From Gemmobacter lutimaris (GTDB lineage: Bacteria; Pseudomonadota; Alphaproteobacteria; Rhodobacterales; Rhodobacteraceae), in NCBI RefSeq assembly GCF_003570715.1, contig NZ_QXXQ01000019.1, forward strand, positions 1-64,000: a stretch of DNA of 64,000 bases, in the 5' to 3' direction. How positions within the stretch are numbered: the stretch's first letter is position 1; every line of letters begins with the position of its first letter. Of this stretch, positions 13,904 to 38,342 are shown in pieces. The position numbers were made by a program, and so were the translations under genes. The notes under the pieces were generated by a model that had not been told where the DNA came from, searched no databases, and saw nothing but the letters and a program-made list of their open reading frames with translations.

Positions 13904-14007
13904 CGCAGCACCCTGTCAGGATTTGCCACCCTTATGCCCCAGATTGAGGGTGTTGACGATTCCTTTACCACGATTCCGCCCCCACCCCTTTCAACAGGAG
14001 ACCCCCG
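13904..14007. promoter_or_regulatory. divergent control region with inverted repeat
   Basis: Short region between the WYL regulator and the operon it faces. It holds an imperfect dyad: CACCCTTA (13927-13934) facing TGAGGGTG (13945-13952), 7 of 8 positions paired, followed by TTGACG (13953-13958). This is a plausible operator for the regulator. A ribosome site AGGAG (13996-14000) serves the ATG at 14008. No clear -10 box is visible. Confidence 0.45.
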
Positions 14008-14721: not shown

Positions 14722-14785
14722 GGCAAGGGGTTGATCGGGCAGGATTTCCCGGCAAGGTTGGGACAAGGGCAAAGGCAGGTCAGGC

Positions 14786-22318: not shown

Positions 22319-22333
22319 CCAAAGGGTTCGGTC

Positions 22334-25300
22334 ATGGGTCACGAGTATGACGATGTGGAACTGCCCTTCCTGAACCAGTGCCGCGCCATGGGCTGGCAGG
22401 TGCAACAGGGGTCAAAGGACGACCCCAGCCTGACCGGGCGCGTCACCTTCCGCGAGACCATCGCCGAGGCCACGCTGCGCGAGCGCCTGCGCGCCATCAA
22501 CCCCGGCCCCGATGGCCAGCCCTGGCTGGACGATGCCCGCCTGTCCGAAGCCGTCAGCGCCCTGACTCGCCATGGCCAGCGCGGGCTGACGGAGGCGAAC
22601 CAGGCGGTGACGGAACTGCTGCTGCGCGGCCTGACGGTCGAGGGCCTGCCCGGCTGGGACGGCGGGCGCGGCCAGACCATCCGCTATATCGACTGGGATG
22701 ATGTGGGGGCCAACACCTTTACCATCGCCAACCAGTTCCGCGTCGATTGCCCGCCCGGCCATGACGTGGGCAAGGGCTTCATCATCCCCGACCTTTTGCT
22801 GCTGGTGAACGGCATCCCGGTGGTGGTGGTCGAGGCGAAAAGCCCCGCCATCCCCGAGCCGCTGGCCGAGGCAGTGAACCAGCTTCGCCGCTATCATAAC
22901 GCCCGCAAGGCCGCGCTGGAGGTGGAGGAGAACGAGGGTGCGCCCGCGCTGTTCGCCTCTGTCCAGTTGCTGATCGCCACAAGCTTCGATCAGGCCCGCG
23001 TCGGCTGCATCGGCGCGGGGCTGGAACATTACGGAAGCTGGAAAACCGTGGTCGGGCCGGATGGCACCGGGTCCGAGGACGAGGTGGCGGCGGGTTTGGG
23101 GAAAAAGGGCCTGTCGGAACAGGAACGCCTGATCGCCGGGATGCTGCGGCCCGCGCATCTGCTGGATATCCTGCGGCATTACCTGCTGTTCATGAATGTG
23201 GGCGGCCAGACCATCAAGACCGTCTGCCGTTATCAGCAATACCGCGCGGTGAACCGCGCGCTGGAACGGCTGCGCACCGGCAAGACCCGCGCGCAGGATG
23301 GCGAATATGACCGGCGCGGCGGGATCGTCTGGCATACGCAGGGGTCGGGCAAAAGCCTGACGATGGTGTTCATGATCCGCAAGATGCGGACCGATGTGGC
23401 CTTGCGGAAGTTCAAGATGATCATGGTCACCGACCGTCGTGACCTGCAACGCCAGCTGTCGGAAACGGCGACCCTTTCGGGCGATGTGGTGGAGCTGGCG
23501 ACGAATGCCGGGGCGCTGAAACGGCTGGCGCGGCGCAAGGGGCCGGGGCTGGTCTTCGCCACTATCCAGAAATACCGGACCGAGGAGGATATCCCCGAGG
23601 TGACCAAGGGCCCGGCCTTCGAGGTGCTGAACGAGGATGAGACGATTCTTGTCGTGGTGGACGAGGCGCACCGCACTCAGGCCGGAGACCTGCACGCCAA
23701 CCTGATGGCGGCCCTGCCGAATTGCGCCCGCATCGGCTTCACCGGCACGCCGATCATTATGGGCGAAAAGAAACGCACGGCGCAGATCTTTGGCGATTTC
23801 ATCGACCGCTATACGATCAAGGAGGCCGAGGCCGACGGGGCCACGGTGCCGGTCCTGTATGAAGGGCGGACGGCCGAGGGCGCGGTGAAGGACGGCGCCA
23901 CCCTCGACGGGCTGTTCGAGGACATGTTCCGCGACCGGACCGAGGACGAGCTTGAGGCGATCCGCAAGAAATACGCGACGAAGGGCAACATCCTCGAGGC
24001 CCCGGCGCTGATCGCGGAAAAGGCCCGCGACATGCTGCGGCACTATGTGACGAACCTGCTGCCCAACGGCTACAAGGCGCAGGTCGTGGCCTACAGCCGC
24101 CTTGCGGTGATCCGGTATCATGCTGCGTTTCTTGAGGCGCGGGATGAGTTGTTGGCGCAGGCGGCCGCGCTGTCGGATCACGACAAGGCAATGGACGACG
24201 AGTTCCTGTGCAGCAAGCCGCCTGTGACGCAGGCCCTCGTCCAGGCTTGGCGGTATCGCGACACGCTGGCGCGGATCGAGTTTGCGCCCGTGATGTCGGG
24301 CGGCAACAACGATGACCCGACCTGGCGGCAATGGACGGAAGGCCATGCCCAGGAAGCCCGGATCAAGCGGTTCAAGAAACCCCTGTTCCACAAGGACCCG
24401 GCCAAGACCGATCCGCTGGCGTTCCTGATCGTCAAATCCATGCTTTTGACTGGGTTCGACGCCCCCATTGAGGGGGTGATGTATCTGGACCGGTCGATCC
24501 GCGAAGCCGAACTCTTGCAGGCCATCGCCCGGGTCAACCGGACAGGTTTCGGCAAGTCCTGCGGGATCGTCGTGGACTATTTCGGCGTGGCACATCACCT
24601 GAAGGCCGCCTTGGCCGCATATGCGGACGAGGATATCGAGGGCGCTCTGGTCGGGCTCAATGACCAGATCCCGGTGCTGCGGGATCGCCACATCCGGGTC
24701 ATCGACATTTTCCGCAGGGCCGGCCTTGAGGACCTTTCTGATGATGAGGGCTGCCTGAATGTCCTTGCCACCGAGAAGGCCCGGGCCGAGTTCACAGTCA
24801 AGCTCAAGGACTTCCTGACCTCGCTCGAAATCATCCTGCCACGTCCCGAAGGCCTTCCTTTCGTCAAGGATGCGAAGCGCTTGGCCTATATCCATGCCCG
24901 TGCACGCAACCGATATCGCGATGTCATGTCGCTTGGGTCCGATGTCGGAGCAAAGGTCCGCAAGCTGATCGATGACCATGTGATTTCCTTGGGGATCGAC
25001 CCAAAGATCCCGCCTGTTCAGCTGACCGATGCGAACTTTGACAACCATGTTGGGCAGACGACCGGCAATCGTGCCAAAGCCTCGGAGATGGAGCATGCGA
25101 TCCGGTCGCACATCCGTAAGAACCTTGAGGCGGACCCTGTTCGTTTCAAGAAGATGTCGGAGCGCCTGAAGCAGATCCTGGAGGGGCTCGGGCAGCAGTG
25201 GGACCAGATCATCGAACAACTCCAGGCACTTATAGATGAGCTTCGCTCCGAAGGCGCATCCGCTGACGGAACGGCGCCTAACATCCCCGAGGTTTACCTA

Positions 25301-25600
25301 CCCTTCTTGCGGACCGTGCTGGAGGCTTGCGCCGCGGGGCCGGAAACGGACTCAGCCCAGTTGCAGGCCATCCACCAAATGACCGTCGAGATTGTTGACC
25401 GGATCATTGAAGAGGTGGGCTCCAACCGTTCGATCTGGAGCAGCTTCAAGCTTGCGGACCAAGAAAACCTGCGTTCGGAGGTATTCGAGATCATTTTTGA
25501 CCGGCGGCTGAGCGGGTTCACGGTGGCCGATGCTGAAAGCCTAGCTGATGAGTTGATCCAGCAAGCCAAGGCAAACGATGAAAGGCTCAGGACAGCGTGA
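22334..25600 (+). CDS. hsdR: type I restriction endonuclease subunit
   Basis: A 1088-residue motor/nuclease subunit. The N-terminal HSDR_N nuclease has PDLLLLVNGIPVVVVEAK (D...ExK core, ~152-170). The helicase motor shows HTQGSGKSLTM (Walker A, ~334), VVDEAHRTQ (DEAH, ~441), GFTGTP (~469) and IARVNRTGFGK (motif VI, ~730). The C-terminal ~300 residues are the helical HsdM-docking part. It cleaves unmethylated DNA after ATP-driven translocation. It overlaps the metallopeptidase gene by 4 nt, a linkage seen in many type I loci. Confidence 0.95.
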   Translation: MGHEYDDVELPFLNQCRAMGWQVQQGSKDDPSLTGRVTFRETIAEATLRERLRAINPGPDGQPWLDDARLSEAVSALTRHGQRGLTEANQAVTELLLRGLTVEGLPGWDGGRGQTIRYIDWDDVGANTFTIANQFRVDCPPGHDVGKGFIIPDLLLLVNGIPVVVVEAKSPAIPEPLAEAVNQLRRYHNARKAALEVEENEGAPALFASVQLLIATSFDQARVGCIGAGLEHYGSWKTVVGPDGTGSEDEVAAGLGKKGLSEQERLIAGMLRPAHLLDILRHYLLFMNVGGQTIKTVCRYQQYRAVNRALERLRTGKTRAQDGEYDRRGGIVWHTQGSGKSLTMVFMIRKMRTDVALRKFKMIMVTDRRDLQRQLSETATLSGDVVELATNAGALKRLARRKGPGLVFATIQKYRTEEDIPEVTKGPAFEVLNEDETILVVVDEAHRTQAGDLHANLMAALPNCARIGFTGTPIIMGEKKRTAQIFGDFIDRYTIKEAEADGATVPVLYEGRTAEGAVKDGATLDGLFEDMFRDRTEDELEAIRKKYATKGNILEAPALIAEKARDMLRHYVTNLLPNGYKAQVVAYSRLAVIRYHAAFLEARDELLAQAAALSDHDKAMDDEFLCSKPPVTQALVQAWRYRDTLARIEFAPVMSGGNNDDPTWRQWTEGHAQEARIKRFKKPLFHKDPAKTDPLAFLIVKSMLLTGFDAPIEGVMYLDRSIREAELLQAIARVNRTGFGKSCGIVVDYFGVAHHLKAALAAYADEDIEGALVGLNDQIPVLRDRHIRVIDIFRRAGLEDLSDDEGCLNVLATEKARAEFTVKLKDFLTSLEIILPRPEGLPFVKDAKRLAYIHARARNRYRDVMSLGSDVGAKVRKLIDDHVISLGIDPKIPPVQLTDANFDNHVGQTTGNRAKASEMEHAIRSHIRKNLEADPVRFKKMSERLKQILEGLGQQWDQIIEQLQALIDELRSEGASADGTAPNIPEVYLPFLRTVLEACAAGPETDSAQLQAIHQMTVEIVDRIIEEVGSNRSIWSSFKLADQENLRSEVFEIIFDRRLSGFTVADAESLADELIQQAKANDERLRTA

Positions 25601-26505: not shown

Positions 26506-27492
26506 TCACGGCATGGCGGCAAAGTCTGAGCGGCGATGCCCTTCGACCATGTCGCGCAGTGCCTGCGGGGCAATCACCTCGACCTTGTCGCCCCATTGGT
26601 AGAGGTGCCAGGTCATCTCCAGCCAGCCCGCCGCGTGAAAGCGCACGATCAGACTGCCATCGTCCTGTGGTTCCAGGACCTGCTGCGGATGGAAGCGGAA
26701 GCCTGCGGCGCGGTCGGCGGCCTCCGGAGCAAAGCGCCAGACCACCTCGCCGTATTGCGCCGGATCCTGCCAGACGCCGAAGGCCAGCGCGGCGTATTCG
26801 GCGATGGTGAACCCGTCCTGAAATGCGAAGCTTTCATTCAGCGTCTCGGCCTCGTGGATGAGGTCGATGCGGAAGTTGCGCACCTCGTCCGCCTTGGCCG
26901 GATCGCGGGCGGCAAGATAGGTCCGATGGCCCAAAAGGACCCCGTGCGGTTCGAGGATGCGGGAAGCAGCGTCCTGATTGTAGCGCACGCGCAGGCGGAA
27001 GGGACCACGCAGGGCTTCGATGATCGCGTCGAGGATTGCGGGTTGAAGGCTGACCTTCGGCCCCGGCCGGGTGACCTGGCCCATCGCCAGTAACACTGCC
27101 TCGGCATCCGCCTCGACCCGCGCCCGGGCGGGAACCCGCGCGAGCAGGCCATCGCGCAGGTCGTTCAATGCCTTGGCGTGGCGCAGCCGTCCCTCGGTCT
27201 CGGCCGTCCGGGCCGCGATATCCAGCGCTTCGACACCGGTTTCGTGCCGCAGCTGCAACTGCGTCAAGCCGGAATTGACCAGCCGCCAGCGTCTCTTGCG
27301 GTCCTCTCCATCCTCAGCTTCGACATTGCCGAAGGTCTCCTCAAGCGCATCGGTCATTCGCTGCGCGGTGCGGTGCGAGACGCCGAATTCCTCGCAGATA
27401 TCCTCCAGACTGACGCCGCCGCGCCGTGCAGCGGCAATCTGGGCAAGTCGGATCAGATCTTGGGCCTTCGAAAACGACATGCTGCCTCGCAA
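26506..27492 (-). CDS. WYL-domain transcriptional regulator (second copy)
   Basis: A 328-residue paralogue of the regulator at 12908-13903. HTH: VSLEDICEEFGVSHRTAQRMTDAL (~23-46); WYL region LHxVLLGxRxYLAAR form (EPHGVLLGHRTYLAARD); end VEVIAPQALRDMVEGH. It diverges from the small protein/nuclease-helicase/McrBC operon across 127 bp that contain a long inverted repeat, so it probably represses that operon until infection. Having two related regulators, each facing a different defence operon, suggests duplication with the promoter regions or independent capture from one family. Confidence 0.9.
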   Translation of the reverse strand: MRGSMSFSKAQDLIRLAQIAAARRGGVSLEDICEEFGVSHRTAQRMTDALEETFGNVEAEDGEDRKRRWRLVNSGLTQLQLRHETGVEALDIAARTAETEGRLRHAKALNDLRDGLLARVPARARVEADAEAVLLAMGQVTRPGPKVSLQPAILDAIIEALRGPFRLRVRYNQDAASRILEPHGVLLGHRTYLAARDPAKADEVRNFRIDLIHEAETLNESFAFQDGFTIAEYAALAFGVWQDPAQYGEVVWRFAPEAADRAAGFRFHPQQVLEPQDDGSLIVRFHAAGWLEMTWHLYQWGDKVEVIAPQALRDMVEGHRRSDFAAMP

Positions 27493-27529
27493 GCGTGTCA
27501 GAGATTGTCACCCCGGCAGGCTAGGAAGA

Positions 27530-27600
27530 TTGGTGCGACCTGTCGAGCCGATTCCCGAGTGATTTCCATCACCAGTTCCTTGGCCCGGCAGGCGCACCAA
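27530..27600. promoter_or_regulatory. long-spaced inverted repeat in WYL/operon control region
   Basis: TTGGTGCGACCTG (27530-27542) faces CAGGCGCACCAA (27589-27600). Reverse-complemented, the second arm reads TTGGTGCGCCTG, matching the first with only one base gap. The centre-to-centre spacing is about 59 bp, as expected for two operator half-sites bound on the same DNA face or looped by a dimeric regulator. It sits between the WYL gene start (27492) and the ATG at 27620. A ribosome site AGAGGAAGAA lies just before 27620. Operator role is inferred. Confidence 0.55.
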
Positions 27601-27619
27601 AGCATTAAGAGGAAGAACA

Positions 27620-27889
27620 ATGGCTGGTCGTGTCATCAGGATCGAACGGGTTTCATCGCGGGGCGGCATCGTCGAGGAGCCTGTCGTTACGTCTAAGGGC
27701 TATCAGCTTGCCGATCCGGCGCATGGCAAACACAAGCACCACGCCGAAAACGCGACCTATGTCCGGACGCTGGACGAGGCCGCCTCGCTTGTCAGTCGTG
27801 GCTTTTCGCTGCGCATGGGCGCAAAAGGCAAGCCGCCCTCGCTGATCGCGCCGAAGAGCCTCCGGATCGTGCGAGAGGGTGATGTGTAG
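27620..27889 (+). CDS. uncharacterised 89-aa protein heading McrBC operon
   Basis: A small basic protein (MAGRVIRIERVSSRGGIVEE...), with a HGKHKHHAENATYV stretch and a C-terminal SLIAPKSLRIVRE segment. No family recognised. No membrane span or signal peptide. It is the first gene downstream of the WYL-controlled promoter region and 157 bp before the nuclease-helicase gene. Good ribosome site (GAGGAAGAA) and typical codon use support it being real. A regulatory or nucleic-acid-binding accessory role is only a guess from its charge. Confidence 0.65.
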   Translation: MAGRVIRIERVSSRGGIVEEPVVTSKGYQLADPAHGKHKHHAENATYVRTLDEAASLVSRGFSLRMGAKGKPPSLIAPKSLRIVREGDV

Positions 27890-28046
27890 TTGGCCTGAAC
27901 CTGCGCAAGGTTCAGCGGGCGGCACGCCGATTTATTGGCGCCTCGAGCCCGACAGGAATTGACACCCAAGGAGATTATTGAAGAACCTGTGACCTGACGA
28001 GACGATTCCGCTTCGGGTTGCGCTCATTTACGATTTCAGGGCGACC

Positions 28047-31000
28047 ATGAGGAACCTCGGCGGCACCATCCTTTTCTCGGCAACCGACCTGATGCGGTTC
28101 ATGGGCTGTGCCCATGCTACGACGCTTGATCTGATGCGGCTGCGCGGCGAGGGGCCGGAGCCGGGCGAGGATAGCGAGGACACCGCCTTGTTGCAAAAGC
28201 AGGGCGATGCACATGAGGCGGCGCATCTGGAAAAGCTGAAATCCGCCGGCAAAGCCGTGCTGGAAATTCCCCGCGGCGATCTGTTCGCCGATGCGCAGGC
28301 GACCCAGGCGGCGCTGGTGCAGGGTGCCGAGGTGGTCTTTCAGGGGGCATTCCTGTCGGGCACTTGGGGCGGCTGGTCGGATTTCCTGCTGCGGGTGGAT
28401 AAGCCCTCGGCCCTCGGCCCGTTCAGCTATGAGGTGGCCGACACCAAGCTGAAGCGCAGGCCGCATCCCAAGCATGTGCTACAGCTTGTTCTCTATTCCG
28501 ACCTGCTGACCGAAGTGCAGGGTGTCGCGCCGGAATTCGCCCATGTCGAACTTGGCACCGGCGAGCGCGCGACCCTGCGACTGGCGGACTATGCGCATTA
28601 CGCCCGGGCGGCCCGGGCGCGGCTGGAGGCATTTGTTGCCGCACCAAAGCCAACGCGCCCCATCCCATGCGCCGATTGCGGCCTTTGCCGTTGGGCCGAT
28701 CATTGCGAAAGCGTCTGGCATGCGGAGGACAGCCTTTTCAACGTGGCCAATATCAGCCGGGGACAGGTCAAGAAGCTGGAGGCCGCGGGGATCACCACGA
28801 TGGCGGCCCTTGCGGAACGGGATCGCCCGGTGCGGGGCATGGCCGAGGGAACCCGCGTGCGTCTGGTAACGCAGGCCCAGTTGCAGCATGCCCGCAAGAC
28901 CGGCGCCCCGTCCTTCGAGTTGCGCGCGCCAGAGCCAGGCAAGGGCTTTGACTTGCTGCCCGCGCCGCAGCCGGGCGATCTGTTCTACGACATCGAAGGC
29001 GATCCGCACTACGAGGGCGGCCTCGAATATCTGCATGGCGTCTGGTGCGACGGGCAGTTCCGCGCCTTCTGGGCGCACGACCACGCGGCCGAGGCCAAGG
29101 CGCTCGAGGAGCTTCTCGCTTTCTTCCGCGCGCGGCTGGAGGCGTTCCCGAACGCCCGCATCTATCATTACGCGGCCTACGAGATCACCGCGCTGCGCCG
29201 CCTGACCACGAAATACGGGATCGGCGAAGCCTTCCTTGACCGCCTGCTGCGCGAACGGCGCTTTGTCGATCTGTTCGCGGTCGTGCGCGGCGGGCTGATC
29301 GGGTCGGAACGCAACTATTCCATCAAGTCGATGGAGGCCTTTTACGGCCGCGTGCGCGAGGGAGAGGTCAAGACGGCGGGTGGGTCGGTCGTGGCCTATG
29401 AGCGCTGGCGCGAGACGGGCGAACAGCAGATCCTTGACGAGATCGAGGATTACAATCGGATCGACTGCATCTCGACCGAGGAACTGCGCGACTGGCTGGT
29501 GGGCATCCGCCCAGCGGGTCCGTGGCCGACCCTGGCCCCTGATGCCGGGCCGAAAGAGGCTGAGGAAGATGCCGATGCGCAGGCCTTGCGCACGGCACTT
29601 GCCGCGTCAGACCTGCCCGAGGACCGGCAGGCGCTGCTGTTCAACCTCGGCCTTTTCCACAAGCGCGAGGCCAAGCCCGCGCAATGGGCTGTGTTCGATT
29701 CCGCGTCCAAGGACGAGGATGACCTGCTCGACAATTTGGACGCGCTGGCGGGGCTGGAAGCGATTGGTCCAATCGAGCCGATCAAGCGGTCCTTCGCCCG
29801 CAGCTATCGCTTCCCGCTGCAAGAGACGAAGCTTCGCCCCGGCAAGGGCGCGACGGTGCCGGTGTTCGATGGCCCGCCGATCTCGGTCAGCATCACCGAC
29901 ATGGATCGCAGGGCGCGGCATGTCACGGTGAAGGCTGGGCCCGGAAAAGATCATCTGCTCGGCGACCGGGTGAACCTGCACCCCGACTGGCCACTTGATC
30001 CGAAACCCATTCCTGGCGCCTTGCGTGACGTCATTGCCGACCAATGTGGGCCGCGGGCCTGGCGGGCGGTCGATGATCTGCTATCGCGGGCAGCACCCCG
30101 TCTGAAAACCGGTCCGCTGAAGCCTGTGGCCGACCCCGTTTCCGGCACGATCGCGGCTGTGGGTGCGATGGACGAAACCGTGCTGCCGATCCAGGGGCCG
30201 CCTGGCACTGGCAAGACGTATGTCACTGCCCGGGCGATCCTGTCGCTGGTTTGGAAAGGCGCAAGGGTCGGCGTGACCTCAAACAGCCACGAAGCGATCC
30301 GCAACGTCCTGATGGGTTGCCTGAGTGCTCTCGAGGAAGAGGATCTGCCGATCACGCTGGATCTGGTTCACAAGACCAGCGGCGACGATGACGGCTACCC
30401 CGACGATTGCCCGGTGAGGCGCACCACCAGCAATGACGATGCGGCGGGCGGCCAGCATGTTGTCGGCGCGACGGCCTGGTTCTTCTCTCGCGACGAGAAT
30501 GTGCAGGCCTTCGATTGGCTTTTTGTGGACGAGGCCGGACAGGTCGGTCTGGCCAACATGGTGGCCATGGGCCGGGCCGCACGCAACATCGTGTTGGTCG
30601 GTGACCCGCGCCAACTGCCGCAAGTGATCCAAGGGGCGCATCCCGAACCGGCGAACCTGTCATGCCTCGACTGGATGCTGGGCGACCATGCGACCGTGCC
30701 CCCGGACCGTGGCATCTTCCTGCCCGTCTCGCGCCGGATGCACCCGGAGGTCTGCCGCTTCATCTCGGATCAGGTCTATGAGGGGCGGCTGAACAGCCAC
30801 CCCGACACCGCGCGTCAGGCGGTAAGCGGGACGCGCTTCCCCGAGGCGGGGGGCTTCTGGGTGCCGGTCCCTCACGAGAGCAACGCGCAGATCGCGGCCG
30901 AAGAGGTTGAAGCGATCCGCGCGGCAGTGGCCGACCTGCTGCGGGGCACATGGACCGACAAGGACCGCACCACTCGCCCGATGCGGGCCAGCGACATCAT

Positions 31001-31322
31001 CGTGGTCGCCCCCTACAATGCACAGGTCAACGCCCTGCGCGACGCGCTGCCCGACGCCATCCGTGTGGGCACGGTGGACAAGTTCCAGGGACAGGAGGCC
31101 CCGGTCTGCCTCGTCTCGATGACCGCCTCATCAGCCGAGGAAACCTCGCGCGGAATGGAGTTCCTGTTCTCGCTCAACCGCATCAACGTGGCGGTATCGC
31201 GCGCCAAGGGGCTGGCACTGGTCTTCGGCGCGCCGCGTCTGCGCGAGGCGAAATGCGAGACGGTTGAGCAGATGCGGCTGGTGAATACGCTCTGCGCTCT
31301 GATGGAATTGGGAGAGGGCTGA
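28047..31322 (+). CDS. RecB-like nuclease fused to SF1 helicase (TM0106-type)
   Basis: A 1091-residue multidomain protein. Residues ~1-230: RecB/Cas4-like PD-(D/E)xK nuclease with YEVADTKLKR (~129) and a Cys cluster CADCGLCRWADHC (~209-221) that could hold an Fe-S cluster. Residues ~310-490: RNase H-like exonuclease-type domain (LFYDIEGDPHY near 312; YNRIDCISTEELRDWL near 471). Residues ~700-1091: SF1/Upf1-type helicase with GPPGTGKT (~718), VDEAGQVGL (~828), GDPRQLP (~852) and VAVSRAKG (~1050). This is the TM0106-type nuclease architecture. The stop TGA is immediately followed by the McrB ATG, so it is made with McrBC. It probably unwinds and degrades cleaved invader DNA; that is inferred. 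Confidence 0.85.
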   Translation: MRNLGGTILFSATDLMRFMGCAHATTLDLMRLRGEGPEPGEDSEDTALLQKQGDAHEAAHLEKLKSAGKAVLEIPRGDLFADAQATQAALVQGAEVVFQGAFLSGTWGGWSDFLLRVDKPSALGPFSYEVADTKLKRRPHPKHVLQLVLYSDLLTEVQGVAPEFAHVELGTGERATLRLADYAHYARAARARLEAFVAAPKPTRPIPCADCGLCRWADHCESVWHAEDSLFNVANISRGQVKKLEAAGITTMAALAERDRPVRGMAEGTRVRLVTQAQLQHARKTGAPSFELRAPEPGKGFDLLPAPQPGDLFYDIEGDPHYEGGLEYLHGVWCDGQFRAFWAHDHAAEAKALEELLAFFRARLEAFPNARIYHYAAYEITALRRLTTKYGIGEAFLDRLLRERRFVDLFAVVRGGLIGSERNYSIKSMEAFYGRVREGEVKTAGGSVVAYERWRETGEQQILDEIEDYNRIDCISTEELRDWLVGIRPAGPWPTLAPDAGPKEAEEDADAQALRTALAASDLPEDRQALLFNLGLFHKREAKPAQWAVFDSASKDEDDLLDNLDALAGLEAIGPIEPIKRSFARSYRFPLQETKLRPGKGATVPVFDGPPISVSITDMDRRARHVTVKAGPGKDHLLGDRVNLHPDWPLDPKPIPGALRDVIADQCGPRAWRAVDDLLSRAAPRLKTGPLKPVADPVSGTIAAVGAMDETVLPIQGPPGTGKTYVTARAILSLVWKGARVGVTSNSHEAIRNVLMGCLSALEEEDLPITLDLVHKTSGDDDGYPDDCPVRRTTSNDDAAGGQHVVGATAWFFSRDENVQAFDWLFVDEAGQVGLANMVAMGRAARNIVLVGDPRQLPQVIQGAHPEPANLSCLDWMLGDHATVPPDRGIFLPVSRRMHPEVCRFISDQVYEGRLNSHPDTARQAVSGTRFPEAGGFWVPVPHESNAQIAAEEVEAIRAAVADLLRGTWTDKDRTTRPMRASDIIVVAPYNAQVNALRDALPDAIRVGTVDKFQGQEAPVCLVSMTASSAEETSRGMEFLFSLNRINVAVSRAKGLALVFGAPRLREAKCETVEQMRLVNTLCALMELGEG

Positions 31323-34300
31323 ATGTGGGAAGGTATCGAGGCGCGAATTATGGAGAACGACCGTGATGCCGTCGTTCCGTTGCGGCGGGCTTTCCTGGCG
31401 GAGTTGGTCGGGTCTGATTTGCGGCCGGGGACAGCCACGAAGAAGATGGTGGCTTTCGATACGACCGATGGAGAGCGGCTCGTCTGGCAGGTCGAGGCAG
31501 CGGCGCAGAATTTTTATTTGCATCGAAAATGGTCCGACCGGGTGGAAGCGGCAGGTTTTGTTGTAAAACTTTTTCCCTATCAGAACGGCCAGAAGGATGG
31601 GGCGCGCCATTCGGGTTTGAGCCGTGACTGGTCATTCGGGACGTCGGACTGCGTTCAGGTGCGTGTGGACTCGGTGGGTCGGCTGAAAGAGCTAATTGCC
31701 CTTGTCGGTGGTGATAAGGGTGAACTTGCTCTCGATCCTGCTGCCATTGCGCGATGGATCGGTGTGATCCGGACGATGTTTCCGGGCTTCCGGCACTTCG
31801 ATCCGCCGGACGCTGAGTTTGATCAGCGGGAGAGAAGCTACAAGCTCGAAACGTCGCGCAATCTGCGGGCCGGGTTGGAATCTGCCTCTACGGACCGTGA
31901 AGTTCTGGATGCCGTGCTGGCGTCGATCAGCCAGAAGAGCAGCAACCTGCTGGATTGGCGGACGAGCCTCCCGCTCATGCCCAATGGGGACGGCGACAAG
32001 GAGCAGCTTCAACCGGCCCTCGTCCGGCTGGCGCGTGCGGCCTTGGGGCCACCAGAAGGACACGGTGCCGCTATGGATGAGTTCGTTGCGGTCTGGCGCG
32101 CGGCGGTGCCGAAGCCTTCGGACGATCCGCCCCGGCAGATTGCGGAGTTCCTGTTCTTTCACCTCTGGCCGGACTCGGCGAGTTACATCCGCAATACCGT
32201 CCGTCAGGATCTGTGGCGCGAGGGGACGGGGCGTCCTTTTCCGCGTCATCCGCAAGTTTCGGCCACTTATGCCGATGAGTTGCGGTTCATGCGGGCGGTC
32301 CGGGCGGCTTTTGTCGAGCGTGGTCTGGCCCCACGGGACATGATCGATGTGCAGAGTGCGCTTTGGGTTGTGTCGCGGTATCGCGACGAGGACATGAGCA
32401 TCACCCGCCTGACGGTGGAAGGCGCGATGGATGCCATTGATCGGCACAGGGACGGCGTGGAAAGGACAGAGATTCTGGATCGGTTTGGCGATCCGCGCGA
32501 CTATTGGGTTTTGTCGACACGCGCCCGGCCGAACAGAGTCTATCCGACGAAGCCGATCATCGGGGTCATTCGCAAGAAGACTGAATTCAGTGGCGGCTGG
32601 GGGCTGAAGCATGATGCTGCCTCGCTGCTTCATGCAGCCGGTTTCGTGATCGTTGGCGAGAACGGCGAGACTTTGCCGCTGCCCGAACAATACACCCACC
32701 TCGACCGTGGACCTGACCGGGTGCGCCTTTGCGCGGTCAACTACTTCGTTGAACCGGCGCGGGAGGATCACCGGTCGCAGGTGGAGATCGGGGTGGCCGA
32801 TCTGCATCGCCTGCTCGGGCCGTCCTTCACGCTGGCGGCTGCCGGCGAGGCGATCTCTGATCCGCTGTTTGCGGATATGGCGGGAATCACCCTCATCGGA
32901 CGCAGCGGCGCGGCGCAGTCTGATGACGAAACATTCACCTTTGCTTTCGAGCAGACAGGGAAGACAGAACCCATGACGAGCACCGAGATTGCCCTGCCGA
33001 CGAACCTGATCCTTTATGGCCCGCCCGGGACCGGAAAGACCTACCACACAGCGTTCGAGGCGGTCCGGCTGTGTCTGGGCGATCAGGCGGCCGACGCGAT
33101 GCGAAACGACCGGACGGCTGTGATGCAGGCCTATCGGACGCTGGTTTCCGAAGGTCGGGTGGAGTTCGTAACCTTCCATCAGTCCATGTCCTATGAAGAA
33201 TTCGTCGAAGGACTGCGGCCAGAGACGGGTTCTTCCGGTGGGGCCGAACTTTCGGAGGGCGGCGTGCAGGGAGGCGGCTTTACGCTTAAAGTAAAGGATG
33301 GGCTCTTCAAGCGGATCAGCGAGCGGGCGCGGCTTGATACCGGGGTCGCGGCGGAGGGGTCTTCACGACTGGATCGGAAGCGAAAGATTTATCGACTGGG
33401 CCTGACAAGCAGCGGATGGAAGTCCAAGCTGGATCGCGCCTTGGCCTTGGGGCGGATCGATTGGCTACATGGCGGAGATACCGACTGGTCTGCCCCGGAA
33501 TTCGAGGAATGGGAACGGATCAAGGCCGTGCGTCAGGTCGAGAATCCGCAGATCAAGGGATACTCGCCCGATGTCTATGGGACCTGGGTGATCCGTTCGG
33601 AAGCGGAGGTCGGCGACTTCGTCATGCTGACGGCGCGCACCGGAAACGTTGTGGCGCTGGGTCGTATCGTCGGACCGTATCTTTATGAACCACCCTCCGC
33701 AACAGAACCCGCACGGCATTCGCGGGCGGTCGATTGGATATGGTCAAGCGCCCAAGGCGTGGACCGCGAGGGGATCTATCCGAAGCCCTTCACCTCGTTC
33801 CACCCGATCTACTCGCTGGAGCCGGACCTCATCGGCTGGGATGTGCTTGAACAGATAGTGTTCGGGGAGTCCGCCGCCCGCCCGACGCAGTCTGCCCGTC
33901 CCCATGTCCTGATCATCGACGAGATCAACCGGGCCAACATCTCAAAGGTCTTTGGTGAACTCATTACCCTGCTGGAACCGGACAAACGCTTGGGCATGGA
34001 AAACGAGATCAGACTGCAGCTGCCCTATTCAAAGACGCTCTTCGGTGTGCCTGCGAACCTGCACATCATCGGCACGATGAACACAGCCGACAGGTCCATC
34101 GCGCTGCTTGATACCGCGCTGCGCCGCCGCTTCACGTTCCGCGAATTGATGCCGGACCCGTCGGTCCTGCCCGAAGTCGTGGACGGGATCGCGCTTCGCA
34201 GGCTTTTGCAGACGCTGAATGAGCGCATCGAGTATCTCTTCGACCGCGAGCACCAGATCGGACACGCTTATTTCTCGGCCTGCCGGAGCCAATCGGAAAT

Positions 34301-34526
34301 CGTGGATGTGCTGCGATACAAGGTGATCCCCCTGCTGGCAGAATATTTCTACGAGGACTGGTCCCGCGTCGCTGCCGTACTGGGCGATGCGGCGCAGGGG
34401 CGGTCGCGCTTCCTGACCGCGCGTGTTCTGCCGGTGCCCGATGGCCTTGGGGATGATGACACGCGAGAGCCGCGGATGCGCTGGACGCTGAACGACCGTT
34501 TCGATCTGTCCGAGTTTGCGGCCTGA
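31323..34526 (+). CDS. mcrB: McrB-like GTPase with inserted EVE-like domain
   Basis: A 1067-residue AAA+ motor subunit of a type IV (modification-dependent) restriction enzyme. Residues 1-550 are a large uncharacterised N-terminal region, presumably for target recognition (a YWVLSTRARPNRVYP segment near 395). AAA+ core: Walker A GPPGTGKTYHT (~566), Walker B HVLIIDEINRAN (~861), and the McrB signature GTMNTADRSIA (~918) followed by ALRRRFTF. Between Walker A and B, ~690-810 forms an extra domain (TWVIRSEAEVGDFVMLTA... VVALGRIVGPYLYE... RAVDWIW) that looks like an EVE/PUA-type modified-base reader. The start abuts the stop of the helicase, and the end overlaps mcrC by 1 nt. Confidence 0.88.
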   Translation: MWEGIEARIMENDRDAVVPLRRAFLAELVGSDLRPGTATKKMVAFDTTDGERLVWQVEAAAQNFYLHRKWSDRVEAAGFVVKLFPYQNGQKDGARHSGLSRDWSFGTSDCVQVRVDSVGRLKELIALVGGDKGELALDPAAIARWIGVIRTMFPGFRHFDPPDAEFDQRERSYKLETSRNLRAGLESASTDREVLDAVLASISQKSSNLLDWRTSLPLMPNGDGDKEQLQPALVRLARAALGPPEGHGAAMDEFVAVWRAAVPKPSDDPPRQIAEFLFFHLWPDSASYIRNTVRQDLWREGTGRPFPRHPQVSATYADELRFMRAVRAAFVERGLAPRDMIDVQSALWVVSRYRDEDMSITRLTVEGAMDAIDRHRDGVERTEILDRFGDPRDYWVLSTRARPNRVYPTKPIIGVIRKKTEFSGGWGLKHDAASLLHAAGFVIVGENGETLPLPEQYTHLDRGPDRVRLCAVNYFVEPAREDHRSQVEIGVADLHRLLGPSFTLAAAGEAISDPLFADMAGITLIGRSGAAQSDDETFTFAFEQTGKTEPMTSTEIALPTNLILYGPPGTGKTYHTAFEAVRLCLGDQAADAMRNDRTAVMQAYRTLVSEGRVEFVTFHQSMSYEEFVEGLRPETGSSGGAELSEGGVQGGGFTLKVKDGLFKRISERARLDTGVAAEGSSRLDRKRKIYRLGLTSSGWKSKLDRALALGRIDWLHGGDTDWSAPEFEEWERIKAVRQVENPQIKGYSPDVYGTWVIRSEAEVGDFVMLTARTGNVVALGRIVGPYLYEPPSATEPARHSRAVDWIWSSAQGVDREGIYPKPFTSFHPIYSLEPDLIGWDVLEQIVFGESAARPTQSARPHVLIIDEINRANISKVFGELITLLEPDKRLGMENEIRLQLPYSKTLFGVPANLHIIGTMNTADRSIALLDTALRRRFTFRELMPDPSVLPEVVDGIALRRLLQTLNERIEYLFDREHQIGHAYFSACRSQSEIVDVLRYKVIPLLAEYFYEDWSRVAAVLGDAAQGRSRFLTARVLPVPDGLGDDDTREPRMRWTLNDRFDLSEFAA

Positions 34527-35935
34527 TGCGGACCCACACGATCCGGGAGTGGGAAAGCCTGTCCTACGGGGAGGGCGAGGGGCAGATACCGGAGCTCCTG
34601 GCCGCACGGCTTGCGGAAGTTGCGCGGTCATCACCCCTGGCCGGAAGCGGTGGGCAGGGCGTGCTGGAGGAACATCGCAAGCACATCCGGGCGCGGGGAG
34701 TCGTGGGCGTCATTGCTGCACCGCAGGGGGCGCTGGAAATCCTGCCAAAGATCGACGTGGCTGAAGCCGACCCGACAGCCCGCAACGCTGCGATCCGGAA
34801 GCGTCTGATCCATATGCTGGCCGTGGCGTTGGACTTGCGGATCGACCTTGGGCGGATGACGGAGCTCGACTGGCAGCGCGACACGCTTCTGGAAATCCTG
34901 ATCCGGGTTTTTGCCGATAAGCTGACCGAGGCGGTCAGGCGGGGCATGCCACGCCAATATCGGCGGGACGAGGACGATCTGCCCGCCCTTCGCGGGACCC
35001 TCGACGTAACGCGGCAGTTCACGCGGCATGCGGTCAATCCGTCTCGCCTCGCCTGCCGGTTCGATGAGTTGTCCGGCGACATCGCCCTGAACCGGATCCT
35101 GAAGGCGACACTCGGGCATCTCGCCCGTGTCTCGAGAAGTGCAGCGAACCTCCAGAAGCTTCGGGAGCTGGGCTTCGTCTATGCCGACGTCTCGGATGTG
35201 CCGCCGGCAGCGCTGCGCTGGAATGAGGTGATCCTAGACCGGACGAACCGGTCATGGGCCGAGTTGCTGGGCATGGCGCGGTTGTTCCTGTTGGGAAGAT
35301 ATCAGACGACCAGTTCGGGCGCTGGACAAGGCTCTGCGCTGCTGTTCGAGATGAATTCCCTGTTCGAGGAATATGTCGGCCGACTGATCGCGCGCCGCCT
35401 GAGGGGGACGGAGTTTTCCGTCCATCTGCAGGGCGGTCGGTTGTTCTGCCTGACCTCGGAGCCTGACGGGCGCGGTCTGTTCCAGACGAAACCTGACATT
35501 CTCATTCGGCGGGGAGGTGAGGTGGTCCACATCATCGACACGAAGTGGAAGCGGATCGCGGCGCGGGTGGACGACAGGAAGCACGGGGTTTCCCAAAGCG
35601 ACGTTTACCAGATGATGGCCTATGGGCATCTTTACCGGACGGGTCGGTTGACACTGCTGTATCCCCGGCATCAAGGACTGGACGGATCGCCTGTTGTGCT
35701 GGCGCGGAACAGGATCACGGGGTGGGACACGGCTTTGGAGACCGCCTGCGTGGGGATCGGAAATGTTGCGGAATTGATGGCTGATTTGGATGAGCTTTTC
35801 TGGCTCGATGCACCTGCCGTAGCTTCGCGACGATCTCTTCCAGCTCGTGGTTCTTCTGGGGCATTCCTTCGTCCTCCATCTGGATCCACAGCCCAATTGA
35901 GGGAGGCCCCCTTTTCAGGGGGTGACCTTTTTTAG
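34526..35935 (+). CDS. mcrC: McrC-like nuclease subunit, tail replaced by IS DNA
   Basis: A 469-residue McrC partner. The N-terminal half is a DUF2357-like/McrC scaffold, the C-terminal half a PD-(D/E)xK nuclease: LFEMNSLFEEYVGRLIARRL (~273), QTKPDILIRR (~322) and HIIDTKWKRI (~337) give the catalytic D and DxK. McrC stimulates McrB GTP hydrolysis and cuts DNA. The genuine protein appears to end near LDELFWLDA (~429). The last ~40 residues are read antisense through an IS3-family remnant and carry no McrC similarity. The catalytic core is intact, so the enzyme may still work. The true native end is unknown. Confidence 0.85.
   Translation: MRTHTIREWESLSYGEGEGQIPELLAARLAEVARSSPLAGSGGQGVLEEHRKHIRARGVVGVIAAPQGALEILPKIDVAEADPTARNAAIRKRLIHMLAVALDLRIDLGRMTELDWQRDTLLEILIRVFADKLTEAVRRGMPRQYRRDEDDLPALRGTLDVTRQFTRHAVNPSRLACRFDELSGDIALNRILKATLGHLARVSRSAANLQKLRELGFVYADVSDVPPAALRWNEVILDRTNRSWAELLGMARLFLLGRYQTTSSGAGQGSALLFEMNSLFEEYVGRLIARRLRGTEFSVHLQGGRLFCLTSEPDGRGLFQTKPDILIRRGGEVVHIIDTKWKRIAARVDDRKHGVSQSDVYQMMAYGHLYRTGRLTLLYPRHQGLDGSPVVLARNRITGWDTALETACVGIGNVAELMADLDELFWLDAPAVASRRSLPARGSSGAFLRPPSGSTAQLREAPFSGGDLF
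35811..35930 (-). mobile_element. IS3-family left-end remnant inside mcrC
   Basis: Read on the minus strand, an AGGAGGACGAAGGA-like ribosome site is followed by an ATG (35864) encoding MPQKNHELEEIVAKLRQV, the standard OrfA start of a second IS3-family group. Upstream are ~60 bp ending GGTCACCCCCTGAAAAGG near 35928, resembling that group's terminal repeat. IS similarity stops after RQV at about 35811, where McrC coding sequence resumes. It is therefore a ~120-bp scar left by a deletion, not a complete element. Confidence 0.75.
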
Positions 35936-36236: not shown

Positions 36237-38342
36237 ATGAAGGCCACAGAGGCGAAGCTGCTGGATTTCCTTAAGAAATCACCCCAGTTTGTTATCCCCA
36301 TCTACCAACGCACCTACAGCTGGACAGAGCAGGAATGCCGCCAACTGTGGGATGACATCTTGCGGACTGGGTCGAACAACACCGTGTCTGCACACTTCGT
36401 CGGCTCAATCGTCTACATTGAAAAGGGGCTGTACCAGGTTATGGCTCAGCCGCCACTTTTGGTGATCGATGGTCAGCAGCGACTGACTTCGGTAATGTTG
36501 ATCCTTGAAGCCCTTGCGCGGCACCTTGGTGATACGGAACCGGTGGACGGGTTCTCCGCAAAGAAGCTGCGGAGCTACTACCTCTTGAATACCCTCGAAG
36601 AGGGCGAACGTGGCTTCAAGCTGATCCTGACCCAAACCGATAAAGCCAGTCTGCTGGCACTGATGCAGCAGAAGCCGATCCCTACACCCAAATCACAAAG
36701 GATAGCGGAGAACTTCACCTTCTTTGAGGATCGAGTGAAAGCCCTCGGTGGTGACTTGGCCGGACTGTGCAATGGCCTCGCAAAGTTGGTCATTGTCGAC
36801 ATTGCGCTGAACCGCGACCAGGACAATCCGCAGCTTATATTCGAAAGCATGAACTCGACAGGCCGAGAGCTGAGCCAGGCCGATCTGATCCGCAACTATG
36901 TCCTGATGGGGCTTGAGCCTGCCCACCAAACTCAGATCTACGAGGACCACTGGCATCCGATGGAAGTAGCCTTTCCGCAGGAAGCGTATGGCTCCCATTT
37001 TGACGGTTTCATGCGGCATTACTTGACCTTCAAAACCGGCGAAATACCGAACGTTCGAGACGTCTATCTTGCCTTCAAAGCCTATGCTCGCGAGGCCAAC
37101 GGCGCCGCGCACAGCGTTGACGACCTGGTTGCGGACATCCACACCTTCGCTGAGCACTACGGGAAAATGGCGCTTGGAAAGGAAACGGACAAGGATCTTG
37201 CAGCGGCTTTTCAGGATCTTCGGGAACTGAAAGTTGACGTCGCATACCCGTTCCTGCTCGAGCTGTATCAAGACTACGTCGGGGGCGTTCTGCCCAAGGC
37301 GGATTTCATCCGGGCTGTCCGGCTGGTCGAGTCATACGTCTTCCGGCGCGCGATCTGTGCGATTCCGACGAACTCGCTCAACAAGACCTTTGCAACCTTT
37401 GGGCGTGAACTGAGGAAGGATCGCTATCTGGATAGCATCGAAGCACATTTGATGACGTTGCCGTCTTACAGGCGGTTTCCGAATGACGACGAGTTCCGGC
37501 TAGAGTTGGCGCGACGTGATTTGTACAATTTCCGAAGCCGCTCGTACTGGCTGCGCCGCCTTGAGAATGATGGCCGCAAAGAGCGTGTTCCTGTTGATGA
37601 GTACACCATCGAGCACATCATGCCGCAAAACGAAAACCTATCTCAGGCCTGGCGCTCGGCTTTGGGCGAACATTGGCAGACCGTGCAGGAGACCTGGCTG
37701 CACACGCTCGGAAACCTTACCCTTACCGGGTACAATGCCGAATACAGCGACCGTCCATTCCTTGAAAAGCGCGACATGCATGGCGGATTTAAGGAGAGCC
37801 CTCTGCGGCTGAATGAGGGCCTTGCAGCGGTTGAGTCTTGGAATGAAGCTGCAATCCGGGACCGAGCTGAACGCCTTGCGAAACGGGCATCCCAAGTTTG
37901 GTCGGCGCCAAAAATCTCAGCCGAAGTGATCGCGCAGTTGAAGCCCAAGGCAGTGAAAGCCCAAGAATTCACACTGGGTGATCATCCATCGGTCGCAGAG
38001 GGTGGATCGATGCATCCCCTATTTGAAGCGCTGCGCAAAGAGGTACTCGCGCTAGACCCCTGCGTGGTTGAAGAGATCGTCAAGTCGTACATAGCCTACA
38101 AGGCCGAGACCAATTTTCTTGACGTCGTTGCTCAGGCAAAGCGCTTGAGGCTTTCGCTGAACATGAAGTTTCACGAGCTTCACGACGAGAAAAAGATCGC
38201 ACGCGACATGACCAACATTGGTCATTACGGCAATGGGGATGTCGAAATCGCGATCAGTGCGTTAGAGGAACTGCCATACGTTATGGGCCTTGTGCGCCAA
38301 GCATACGAAAAGCAGATGGCCGACGCGGATAGCGCCACTTGA
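36237..38342 (+). CDS. GmrSD-type restriction enzyme (DUF262-DUF1524)
   Basis: A 701-residue single-chain type IV restriction enzyme. The GmrS-like DUF262 part shows IPIYQRTYSW (~21) and VIDGQQRLTSV (~77), a DGQQR nucleotide-hydrolysis site. The GmrD-like DUF1524 part shows YTIEHIMPQN (~456) with the HNH-type His and LGNLTLTGYNAEYSDRPF downstream. The C-terminal ~110 residues match a DUF5655-type domain. The family cuts phage DNA with glucosylated hydroxymethylcytosine and related modifications. It stands alone between the McrBC terminator and the prophage lysis end, on the strand opposite the phage genes, so it may be prophage cargo. Codon use is less GC-rich than in the island genes. Confidence 0.9.
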   Translation: MKATEAKLLDFLKKSPQFVIPIYQRTYSWTEQECRQLWDDILRTGSNNTVSAHFVGSIVYIEKGLYQVMAQPPLLVIDGQQRLTSVMLILEALARHLGDTEPVDGFSAKKLRSYYLLNTLEEGERGFKLILTQTDKASLLALMQQKPIPTPKSQRIAENFTFFEDRVKALGGDLAGLCNGLAKLVIVDIALNRDQDNPQLIFESMNSTGRELSQADLIRNYVLMGLEPAHQTQIYEDHWHPMEVAFPQEAYGSHFDGFMRHYLTFKTGEIPNVRDVYLAFKAYAREANGAAHSVDDLVADIHTFAEHYGKMALGKETDKDLAAAFQDLRELKVDVAYPFLLELYQDYVGGVLPKADFIRAVRLVESYVFRRAICAIPTNSLNKTFATFGRELRKDRYLDSIEAHLMTLPSYRRFPNDDEFRLELARRDLYNFRSRSYWLRRLENDGRKERVPVDEYTIEHIMPQNENLSQAWRSALGEHWQTVQETWLHTLGNLTLTGYNAEYSDRPFLEKRDMHGGFKESPLRLNEGLAAVESWNEAAIRDRAERLAKRASQVWSAPKISAEVIAQLKPKAVKAQEFTLGDHPSVAEGGSMHPLFEALRKEVLALDPCVVEEIVKSYIAYKAETNFLDVVAQAKRLRLSLNMKFHELHDEKKIARDMTNIGHYGNGDVEIAISALEELPYVMGLVRQAYEKQMADADSAT

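What the first reader, a model, noticed from the sequence alone, without database searches (positions are those of the whole stretch)
26506..35935. Five-gene WYL-controlled unit coupling a nuclease-helicase to McrBC
The order is WYL regulator, 89-aa protein, RecB/RNase H-like/SF1 helicase fusion, McrB, McrC. The helicase stop is directly followed by the McrB ATG, and McrB overlaps McrC. Known: McrBC cuts modified DNA; TM0106-type nuclease-helicases are common but poorly characterised. Inferred: the fusion degrades McrBC-cut DNA or gates it, making an extended type IV system. This is the strongest candidate for an undescribed assembly here.
Basis: partly seen in the sequence, partly recalled or inferred. 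Interest (0 to 1): 0.7.

Follow-up and report, generated by a model that had tools for sequence, protein, structure and literature searches.

The report
Defence nuclease-helicase with swappable partner genes
In many alphaproteobacteria a switch gene and a DNA-shredding enzyme gene form a fixed front end, and quite different anti-virus machines, the McrBC enzyme found here among them, are exchanged behind it at the same point at the end of the shredder gene, so the shredder may be a shared part of several immune systems.

Summary
The genes are there, with one correction: WYL (26506-27492) is on the minus strand, divergent from 89-aa > TM0106 nuclease-helicase > McrB > McrC. McrB starts directly after the helicase stop; this recurs, exactly 0 nt in 17 of 37 McrBC loci. 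But the pairing is not McrBC-specific. Among 80 helicase relatives, the slot behind it holds McrBC in 36, sacsin-type genes in 27 (TmtA/Tiamat by PADLOC in three of four tested), SNF2, GHKL-Z1 (Mza), SbcCD-like or RecF-like genes in 5, other or nothing in 8, a contig end in 4. The window's nearest helicases (93-95% identical) have sacsin-type genes or remnants; its nearest McrBC (86%/93%) follows a 76% helicase. On the helicase tree the slot type is scattered almost as if dealt at random (26 changes; shuffled mean 28.3); the helicase's last few residues follow it. A palindrome in the WYL|helicase gap recurs (53 of 61). Best reading: a WYL-controlled nuclease-helicase core with an exchangeable partner slot, degrading DNA that its partner recognises or cuts. 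Architecture well supported; mechanism inferred. No description found in the open-access papers searched.

The parts
26506..27492 (-). HTH-WYL-WCX transcription regulator, divergent from the rest
   Evidence: ORF; HTH_23 25.1, WYL 33.0, WCX 55.0 bits; divergent and adjacent in 60 of 80 loci
27496..27512 (+). conserved imperfect palindrome TGYCA-N5-7-TGWCA, presumed WYL operator
   Evidence: in 53 of 61 WYL|helicase gaps; the longer pattern has only 2 exact matches in the 4.66 Mb genome, both before helicase copies
27620..27889 (+). 89-aa accessory protein, optional part of the core
   Evidence: 18-row alignment; in 26 of 80 loci plus the window; 9 of 10 occurrences in the order survey next to the helicase; AlphaFold pLDDT 87.5, no PDB fold match at E<=0.001
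28047..31322 (+). TM0106-family protein: Fe-S RecB-like nuclease, DnaQ/RNase H-like exonuclease domain, SF1 (Upf1/Dna2-type) helicase
   Evidence: TIGR03491 262.4 bits; PF13482, AAA_11/12; motif residues invariant in 64 homologues; PDB relatives SMUBP-2, DNA2, SEN1, UPF1
31302..31322 (+). variable 3' end of the helicase gene (residues after about 1085, plus stop), which follows the slot type
31323..34526 (+). McrB-type AAA+ GTPase; a roughly 170-aa EVE-like domain is inserted between Walker A and Walker B; long N-terminal region present in one subclass
34526..35935 (+). McrC nuclease subunit
   Evidence: PF10117 250.8 bits
12908..18504 (.). a second WYL unit in the same window, apart from the finding: WYL (-, 12908-13903), then on + a 237-aa ORF, SbcD-like and SbcC-like genes (weak Pfam matches); such a pair also appears in the helicase slot elsewhere
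   Evidence: WYL2 50% identical to the window WYL; palindrome with 1 mismatch at 13914-13930; slot version in L108 and plasmid L203

Best explanation
The locus is one version of a modular defence operon. The constant core is a WYL regulator, facing away, and a TM0106 nuclease-helicase, in part of the loci with the 89-aa protein. Behind the core is a slot that takes unrelated defence systems (here McrBC), in most loci closely joined to the helicase gene, as in coupled translation. Proposed mechanism: (1) WYL binds the palindrome in the divergent promoter and keeps both sides low; infection or DNA damage, probably as single-stranded DNA, relieves it. (2) The slot system identifies or cuts foreign DNA; here the EVE-like domain of McrB would read a modified base and McrB/McrC would make the double-strand break. 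(3) TM0106 loads on the exposed DNA, unwinds it and degrades it with its two nuclease domains. (4) The single strands so made keep WYL off, a feedback. Shown from sequence: gene order, intact motifs, conserved palindrome, tight junctions, slot exchange. Inferred: repression, ligand, substrate, direction of unwinding, cooperation.
For: Slot classes in 80 loci: 36 McrBC, 27 sacsin-type, 5 others. Of 37 McrBC loci (window included) 33 have the McrB ATG within -25..+18 nt of the helicase stop, 17 at exactly 0; of 27 sacsin-type loci 18 have the first ORF at -4..+17. Slot label on the helicase tree: 26 changes, shuffled mean 28.3, as low in 42 of 200. Nearest-neighbour agreement McrBC/sacsin, n=64: helicase core 0.52 against 0.50 shuffled (138 of 300 as high), tail after residue 1085 0.81 against 0.51 (0 of 300). 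DNA identity window/L096 92-100% over 31200-31283, mean about 55% from 31296 on. Both nuclease sites, four Cys and the helicase motifs are kept in McrBC and sacsin-type loci alike (64 rows). The palindrome recurs in 53 of 61 gaps. Named antiphage families in or next to the slot: TmtA up to 1559 bits, MzaB 561 and MzaC 1030, ZorA/B/C beside a 42% relative. A WYL repressor of an immune operon binding promoter palindromes: PMC9122588, passages.
Against: No functional data. Eight of the 80 loci show no recognised system in the slot (L107 has a distant McrBC-like pair), and a Sphingomonas plasmid has WYL-TM0106 with no large system behind, so the core may act alone. With four finer labels the helicase core does carry signal (0.44 against 0.29 shuffled, 4 of 300), and within McrBC loci helicase and McrC distances correlate (Mantel r 0.48, n 37; 0.37, n 24 after removing near copies), so exchange is not fully free. 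McrC occurs without the helicase in 39 of 54 McrC genomes. 9 of 27 sacsin-type loci have looser junctions, and in four of the five loci with other systems the large genes begin about 0.45-1 kb downstream, behind small ORFs. The tail's link to the partner may reflect no more than the ribosome-binding site and start of the next gene. What sacsin-type proteins act on is unknown, so calling the partners DNA-directed is partly inference.
Confidence: 0.5

Rival explanations
1. The WYL-TM0106 core is a complete defence or damage-response system of its own (for example a nuclease-helicase that senses broken DNA, as Hachiman does), and other defence genes merely dock behind its regulated promoter and share its expression.
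For: The slot is exchanged with almost no trace in the helicase core for the two main classes; 8 of 80 loci have other or no recognised genes there; plasmid L198 has the core with no large system; Hachiman is described as a nuclease-helicase genome-integrity sensor (PMC12278908, abstract in search listing).
Against: Start-stop overlaps or 0-nt junctions are kept across unrelated partners; those partners that could be named belong to antiphage or DNA-handling families.
Confidence: 0.27
2. One reading: a dedicated extended type IV system in which TM0106 and McrBC are specific partners.
For: 36 of 80 loci, 17 of 37 with the exact 0-nt junction; 15 adjacent pairs in 390 genomes, 19 co-occurrences against 4.7 expected.
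Against: 27 of 80 helicases have sacsin-type genes instead, including the window's closest relatives; 39 of 54 McrC genomes lack the pairing.
Confidence: 0.12
3. TM0106 protects the host: it repairs or clears ends that a leaky partner leaves on the chromosome, or restrains the partner.
For: Dna2-like make-up fits end processing in repair; it is encoded before the dangerous partner.
Against: Two nuclease domains are kept intact; McrBC of the same family without TM0106 nearby is common (20 regions from 19 of the 39 such genomes looked at).
Confidence: 0.11

Closest known systems
McrBC type IV restriction, EVE-McrB kind (PMC7641849, passages; PMC11090510, outline, passages and section 6)
   Same: McrB GTPase with an inserted EVE-like domain, NxxD motif, McrC with PF10117
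   Different: Coupled to a TM0106 nuclease-helicase behind WYL; the census passages I read list type I RM, DISARM-like and methyltransferase associations, and 'RecB' does not occur in the main text
CoCoNuT systems (PMC11090510)
   Same: Types with a UPF1-like helicase gene beside McrB and McrC genes; a CoCoNuT-like operon with an 83% identical WYL lies elsewhere in this genome (L170)
   Different: Window McrB has NxxD, not NxD; no coiled-coil partner protein seen; the helicase is TM0106-type with RecB and exonuclease domains
CapW / BrxR WYL repressors of immune operons (PMC9122588 and PMC9122601, passages)
   Same: WYL protein with DNA-binding domain next to diverse defence systems; palindrome in the promoter region
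   Different: Here one regulator subclass stays with a fixed nuclease-helicase while the system behind changes; repression not shown
CapK/CapS (PMC13373217, abstract and passages)
   Same: One regulatory gene set upstream of diverse immune operons, responding to DNA damage
   Different: A kinase-repressor pair; no constant nuclease-helicase mentioned in the passages seen
Tiamat (TmtA) and Mza, as slot partners
   Same: Slot proteins match PADLOC TmtA with up to 1559 bits and MzaB/MzaC with 561/1030 bits
   Different: Tiamat is recalled as a single-gene system; here it is joined to WYL-TM0106
Dna2 and Hachiman nuclease-helicases
   Same: Fe-S nuclease joined to an SF1 helicase (Dna2); nuclease-helicase in phage defence (Hachiman, abstract only)
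   Different: TM0106 also has a DnaQ/RNase H-like exonuclease domain (PF13482); gene partners differ

Membership tests
TM0106 family (TIGR03491 / COG2251) | match over the curated cut-off; RecB-like nuclease plus PF13482 plus AAA helicase | tested here: met
   262.4 bits against 97.45; PF13482, AAA_11, AAA_12; domain make-up of COG2251 as in PMC3985635 passages
McrBC type IV restriction | McrB GTPase motifs and McrC with PF10117 in one operon | tested here: met
   GPPGTGKT, D866, E867, N869 and N920-T-A-D923 invariant in 24 McrBs; PF10117 250.8 bits
McrBC type IV restriction | specificity domain for modified bases | tested here: inconclusive
   Inserted domain with an EVE-like sequence pattern (by eye); Foldseek match of the whole model to VcaM4I at E 0.029, prob 1.00 (VcaM4I as EVE-HNH is recalled); phmmer of the insert finds one chance-level hit only, E 0.38
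McrBC type IV restriction | GTP-dependent cleavage of modified DNA | not testable with these tools
   needs biochemistry
CoCoNuT | McrB NxD signature instead of NxxD | tested here: not met
   Window and 23 relatives have NTAD, NxxD; NxD for CnuB from PMC11090510, passage and Figure 2 legend
BrxR/CapW-type WYL repressor | HTH, WYL and WCX domains next to a defence operon | tested here: met
BrxR/CapW-type WYL repressor | binds a palindrome in the operon promoter and represses | tested here: inconclusive
   Conserved palindrome in 53 of 61 gaps; binding and repression not testable; overlap with a -10 box not established
Tiamat (slot partner in relatives, not in the window) | PADLOC TmtA profile over most of its length | tested here: met
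   L051 residues 54-1878 of 1882, 1559 bits; L066 1318 bits; L062 899 bits over most of the protein (20-1157 of 1414); the 2485-aa protein of L069 matches only weakly, 54 bits. Other sacsin-type loci are assigned by tblastn to these, some at only 25-26% identity

The most novel reading that the evidence does not exclude
TM0106 is a general degradation chassis of bacterial immunity: one WYL-regulated nuclease-helicase serves many unrelated sensing or cutting machines (McrBC, Tiamat, Mza, SbcCD-like, SNF2 systems, and in distant relatives perhaps Zorya), which plug in behind it, the few exchangeable C-terminal residues acting as a matching docking tail.
Probability: 0.25. Interest if true: 0.88.

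Novelty: new variant of a known kind. Interest (0 to 1): 0.72.

Why it matters
Defence systems are catalogued as separate units. If Tiamat, Mza and McrBC share a regulated nuclease-helicase in these bacteria, the catalogue misses a common part, and tests of the partners alone may understate or misread their function. The sharp exchange point makes this directly testable: the same core with two partners, and the same partner with and without the core. It also gives the TM0106/COG2251 family, for which I found no functional paper, a concrete role to test, and links one kind of WYL control to several unrelated systems in one genome.

Tried and rejected
A McrBC-only unit: rejected because 27 of 80 helicase loci have sacsin-type genes in the same place. 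A special recombination site at the end of the helicase gene: silent-site identity there (0.45-0.46 at four-fold sites) is like the rest of the gene (0.36-0.58), so none is seen. Fold of the 89-aa protein: confident model, no PDB match at E<=0.001. McrB whole-chain model: only moderate (pLDDT 70.9, pTM 0.35), used for support only. WYL homologues of 58-86% identity away from a helicase (7 places): one stands at a CoCoNuT-like operon (L170); near L214, L216 and L218 the genes scanned gave no clear defence system next to WYL, L217 was only searched with my query set, L215 and G308 end at the contig. TM0106 relatives at 34-44% identity: a WYL match in 1 of the 14 looked at (L181-L186, L199-L201, L233, L236, L237, L239, L240) and mostly none of the named slot types, with exceptions: L182/L183 have a 529/about 820-aa pair, L236 has Zorya genes 194 nt downstream, Vibrio plasmid L201 has TrlF inside a BREX island.

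Rows dropped and choices made: one search left out rows under 851 aa and L176 and L177; 22 of its 95 rows have no slot group and were not counted. One search used 64 rows: McrBC and sacsin-type only, without L106 and without one of each of two duplicate contigs. Slot labels were set by hand. Counted as sacsin-type although no whole gene is there: L040 and L095 (fragments), L054 (only the small companion gene), L060 and L099 (cut by the contig end), L049 (giant in pieces). L110 is counted as other but keeps a short McrB remnant. The ORF search began 25 nt before the stop and took ORFs of 80 residues or more; L090's start at -25 lies at its edge. The 80 loci are the best of 162 found by the helicase query. 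Of 148 plasmid records with a match I looked at 7 regions.
Full report
What is there. The arrangement is: WYL facing left, a 127-nt gap, then on the plus strand 89 aa (27620-27889), a TM0106 nuclease-helicase (28047-31322), McrB (31323-34526) and McrC (34526-35935). The helicase stop and the McrB ATG abut; McrB and McrC share one base. Family matches: TIGR03491 262.4 bits, PF13482, AAA_11/12, WYL, WCX, PF10117 250.8 bits. Around it lie a type I RM operon (18613-25600), a YgjP-like gene, and a GmrSD gene 301 nt downstream of McrC, so this is a defence island.

Is the linkage real? A genome-collection search with the helicase found 162 relatives, of which the best 80 were kept with flanks. A WYL matched over at least 90% of its length lies divergent and adjacent in 60 of the 80, and the 89-aa gene is present in 26 of the 80 (the window adds one to each). 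McrBC follows in 36. In 390 genomes of the order, the helicase is in 34, McrC in 54, both in 19 (4.7 expected; hypergeometric 9e-10, kinship ignored), and the two are adjacent in 15, counted by hand from the coordinates. Hence the pair is recurrent but neither partner depends on the other: 19 helicase genomes and 39 McrC genomes lack it, some perhaps only because of contig ends.

What replaces McrBC. Where McrBC is missing, another large system often sits in the same place. Of 80 loci: 36 McrBC; 27 sacsin-type (22 of about 1.1-1.9 thousand residues or remnants of these, 5 giants or parts of giants up to 2485 residues); one 476-aa plus SNF2 pair (L061; the SNF2 protein matches BrxH and DrmD models best); two with GHKL and Z1 genes (L043, L080; L080 matches MzaB 561 and MzaC 1030 bits); one with sigma-70-region, SF2 helicase and RecF-like genes (L042); one SbcD-SbcC-like pair (L108); 8 other or none (one of them, L107, has AAA_5 and DUF2357 genes, a distant McrBC-like pair); 4 contig ends (tally). 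Of four sacsin-type proteins tested, PADLOC matches three to TmtA (Tiamat) with 899 to 1559 bits and one, a giant, with 54 bits. The Pfam SACS domain passes its cut-off in two of five scanned slot proteins that show it (L051, L069) and lies below it in L062, L039 and plasmid L197; L066 and L081 show no Pfam match. Units can be stacked: McrBC then SNF2 in L056 and L105, McrBC then a giant sacsin-type gene in L073. Seven plasmid regions were looked at: Haematobacter has WYL, 89 aa, TM0106 and a 1405-aa sacsin-type gene; a Sphingobium conjugative plasmid has WYL, TM0106, SbcD-like, SbcC-like, with 3 nt between TM0106 and SbcD; Mesorhizobium has WYL, TM0106, an 87-aa gene and a 1408-aa gene; Sphingomonas has WYL and TM0106 with no large system behind; the other three (38-44% identical helicases) show no adjacent WYL.

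How it is exchanged. The slot label needs 26 changes on the helicase tree (73 labelled of 95 rows, FastTree), against a shuffled mean of 28.3 and as low in 42 of 200 shuffles. The window's helicase is closest to L096, L039 and L040, with sacsin-type genes or a remnant, while its closest McrB and McrC (86% and 93%) are in L097 behind a 76% helicase. In 64 loci, the nearest neighbour by helicase-core DNA shares the McrBC/sacsin label in 52% (shuffled 50%, 138 of 300 as high), but by the tail after residue 1085 in 81% (0 of 300). Against a wholly free exchange: with four finer labels the core keeps signal, 44% against 29% (4 of 300), and single 40-residue core windows reach up to 67% for the two main labels (5 of 300). 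Pairwise DNA identity of window and L096 is 92-100% over 31200-31283, 83% over 31284-31295 and about 55% on average from 31296 on. Silent sites near the break are not unusually conserved, so there is no sign of a dedicated recombination site. WYL and helicase distances correlate (Mantel r 0.57, n 61; 0.41, n 41 without near copies), as do helicase and McrC within McrBC loci (0.48, n 37; 0.37, n 24).

The junctions. In 37 McrBC loci (window included) the McrB ATG lies at -25 to +18 nt of the helicase stop in 33, exactly 0 in 17; a further one, L092, has TTG at 0. In 27 sacsin-type loci the first ORF begins at -4 to +17 in 18; in 12 of these it is a 109-120-aa companion gene, DUF4357 in the one scanned (L062), with the sacsin-type gene behind it. 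The 476-aa gene of L061 starts at -4; small first ORFs start at -11 in L042 and L080 and at -14 in L108. Such junctions suggest coupled translation with several kinds of partner. A sober reading of the exchangeable tail is that it carries the ribosome-binding site and start of the next gene; a docking role is the bolder one.

The core enzyme. In 64 helicases of McrBC and sacsin-type loci C21, C211, C214, C220, D112, D132, K134, Q146, Y150, D315, E317, E379, D473, GPPGTGKT, DEAGQ and Q1014-G1015 are invariant. This fits an Fe-S RecB-type nuclease, a DnaQ-like exonuclease (PMC3985635 passages, predict 3'-5' exonuclease for COG2251) and an SF1 helicase related to SMUBP-2, DNA2, SEN1 and UPF1. Residue roles are assigned from recalled motifs.

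McrB. Walker A, D866, E867, N869 and NTAD are invariant in 24 sequences. A domain of about 170 residues is inserted between Walker A and B, in at least two sequence types. It looks EVE-like; the whole model's match to VcaM4I (E 0.029, after 16 McrB chains) supports this weakly. EVE-McrB is described as the commonest EVE architecture in defence (PMC7641849 passages). The N-terminal third is absent or nearly so in 8 of the 24 aligned McrBs as cut.

Regulation. The WYL|89-aa or WYL|helicase gap holds TGYCA-N5-7-TGWCA in 53 of 61 loci. In the own genome the fuller pattern matches exactly only before the two helicase copies; of 18 one-mismatch sites two lie before other WYL genes of this kind (C11:13914 in the window, C3:128418) and the rest were not examined; the reversed control pattern gave 8 hits against 20. 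The WYL at C3 (83% identical) faces a CoCoNuT-like operon, and the one at 12908-13903 faces SbcD-SbcC-like genes. CapW, a WYL protein, binds promoter palindromes and represses in both directions (PMC9122588 passages); a 2024 paper whose title says that WYL repressors sense single-stranded DNA was seen only as a reference, and DriD binding ssDNA only in a listing abstract (PMC12340889).

Known or new. Searches for TM0106 with McrBC (none), TM0106 (two unrelated papers), COG2251 (three; passages read in one, classification), McrBC with helicase, WYL and defence island (four), McrC with RecB-like nuclease terms, sacsin with WYL, and Tiamat combinations (the longer listings were capped) showed no description of this unit. 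They cover open-licence PMC papers only, and I read passages, not whole papers. The McrBC census (PMC11090510, section 6) announces further McrBC associations for a later paper, so part of this may be known to its authors.

Judgement. The genomic architecture, a fixed WYL-TM0106 core with an exchangeable partner slot, is well supported. The mechanism, that the core degrades DNA which its partner marks or cuts, is inference at about even odds.

Noticed in passing
window 12908-18504: A second WYL gene (50% identical to the first) divergent from a 237-aa ORF and SbcD-like and SbcC-like genes, with a near-match of the same palindrome.
   Followed up: partly
L169 9454-12732 (own genome C3:107453-110731): A second helicase copy, 88-93% identical in pieces, looks frameshifted and has no recognised partner; one search lists an open frame of 1148 aa for its pieces, which I did not reconcile.
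   Followed up: partly
L170 681-12427 (own genome C3): CoCoNuT-like operon (SF1 helicase with MTES_1575 nuclease, coiled-coil protein, AAA_5 protein, DUF2357 protein, 795 aa) divergent from a WYL 83% identical to the window's.
   Followed up: partly
window 36237-38342: GmrSD-type gene with an added DUF5655 domain, 301 nt downstream of McrC.
   Followed up: no
window 42097-46068: Gene-transfer-agent tail protein (GTA_TIM, Rcc01698-like) close to the defence island.
   Followed up: no
L236 1-17659: In a 42% relative a WYL-like gene (33%) and TM0106 are followed by Zorya genes (ZorA, ZorB, ZorC by PADLOC), and McrBC genes lie on the other side.
   Followed up: partly
L201 330-15049: On a Vibrio plasmid a TM0106 gene lies three genes behind a BREX set and overlaps a TrlF-family gene.
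   Followed up: no
L062 13297-13626: A 109-aa DUF4357 protein gene lies between helicase and sacsin-type gene; ORFs of 109-120 aa stand in the same place in 12 of 27 sacsin-type loci.
   Followed up: no
L182 5620-9683 and L183: Distant TM0106 genes are followed by a 529/about 820-aa pair, the second with a PLD-like match in L182; its first gene overlaps the helicase ORF by 4 nt in L182.
   Followed up: no
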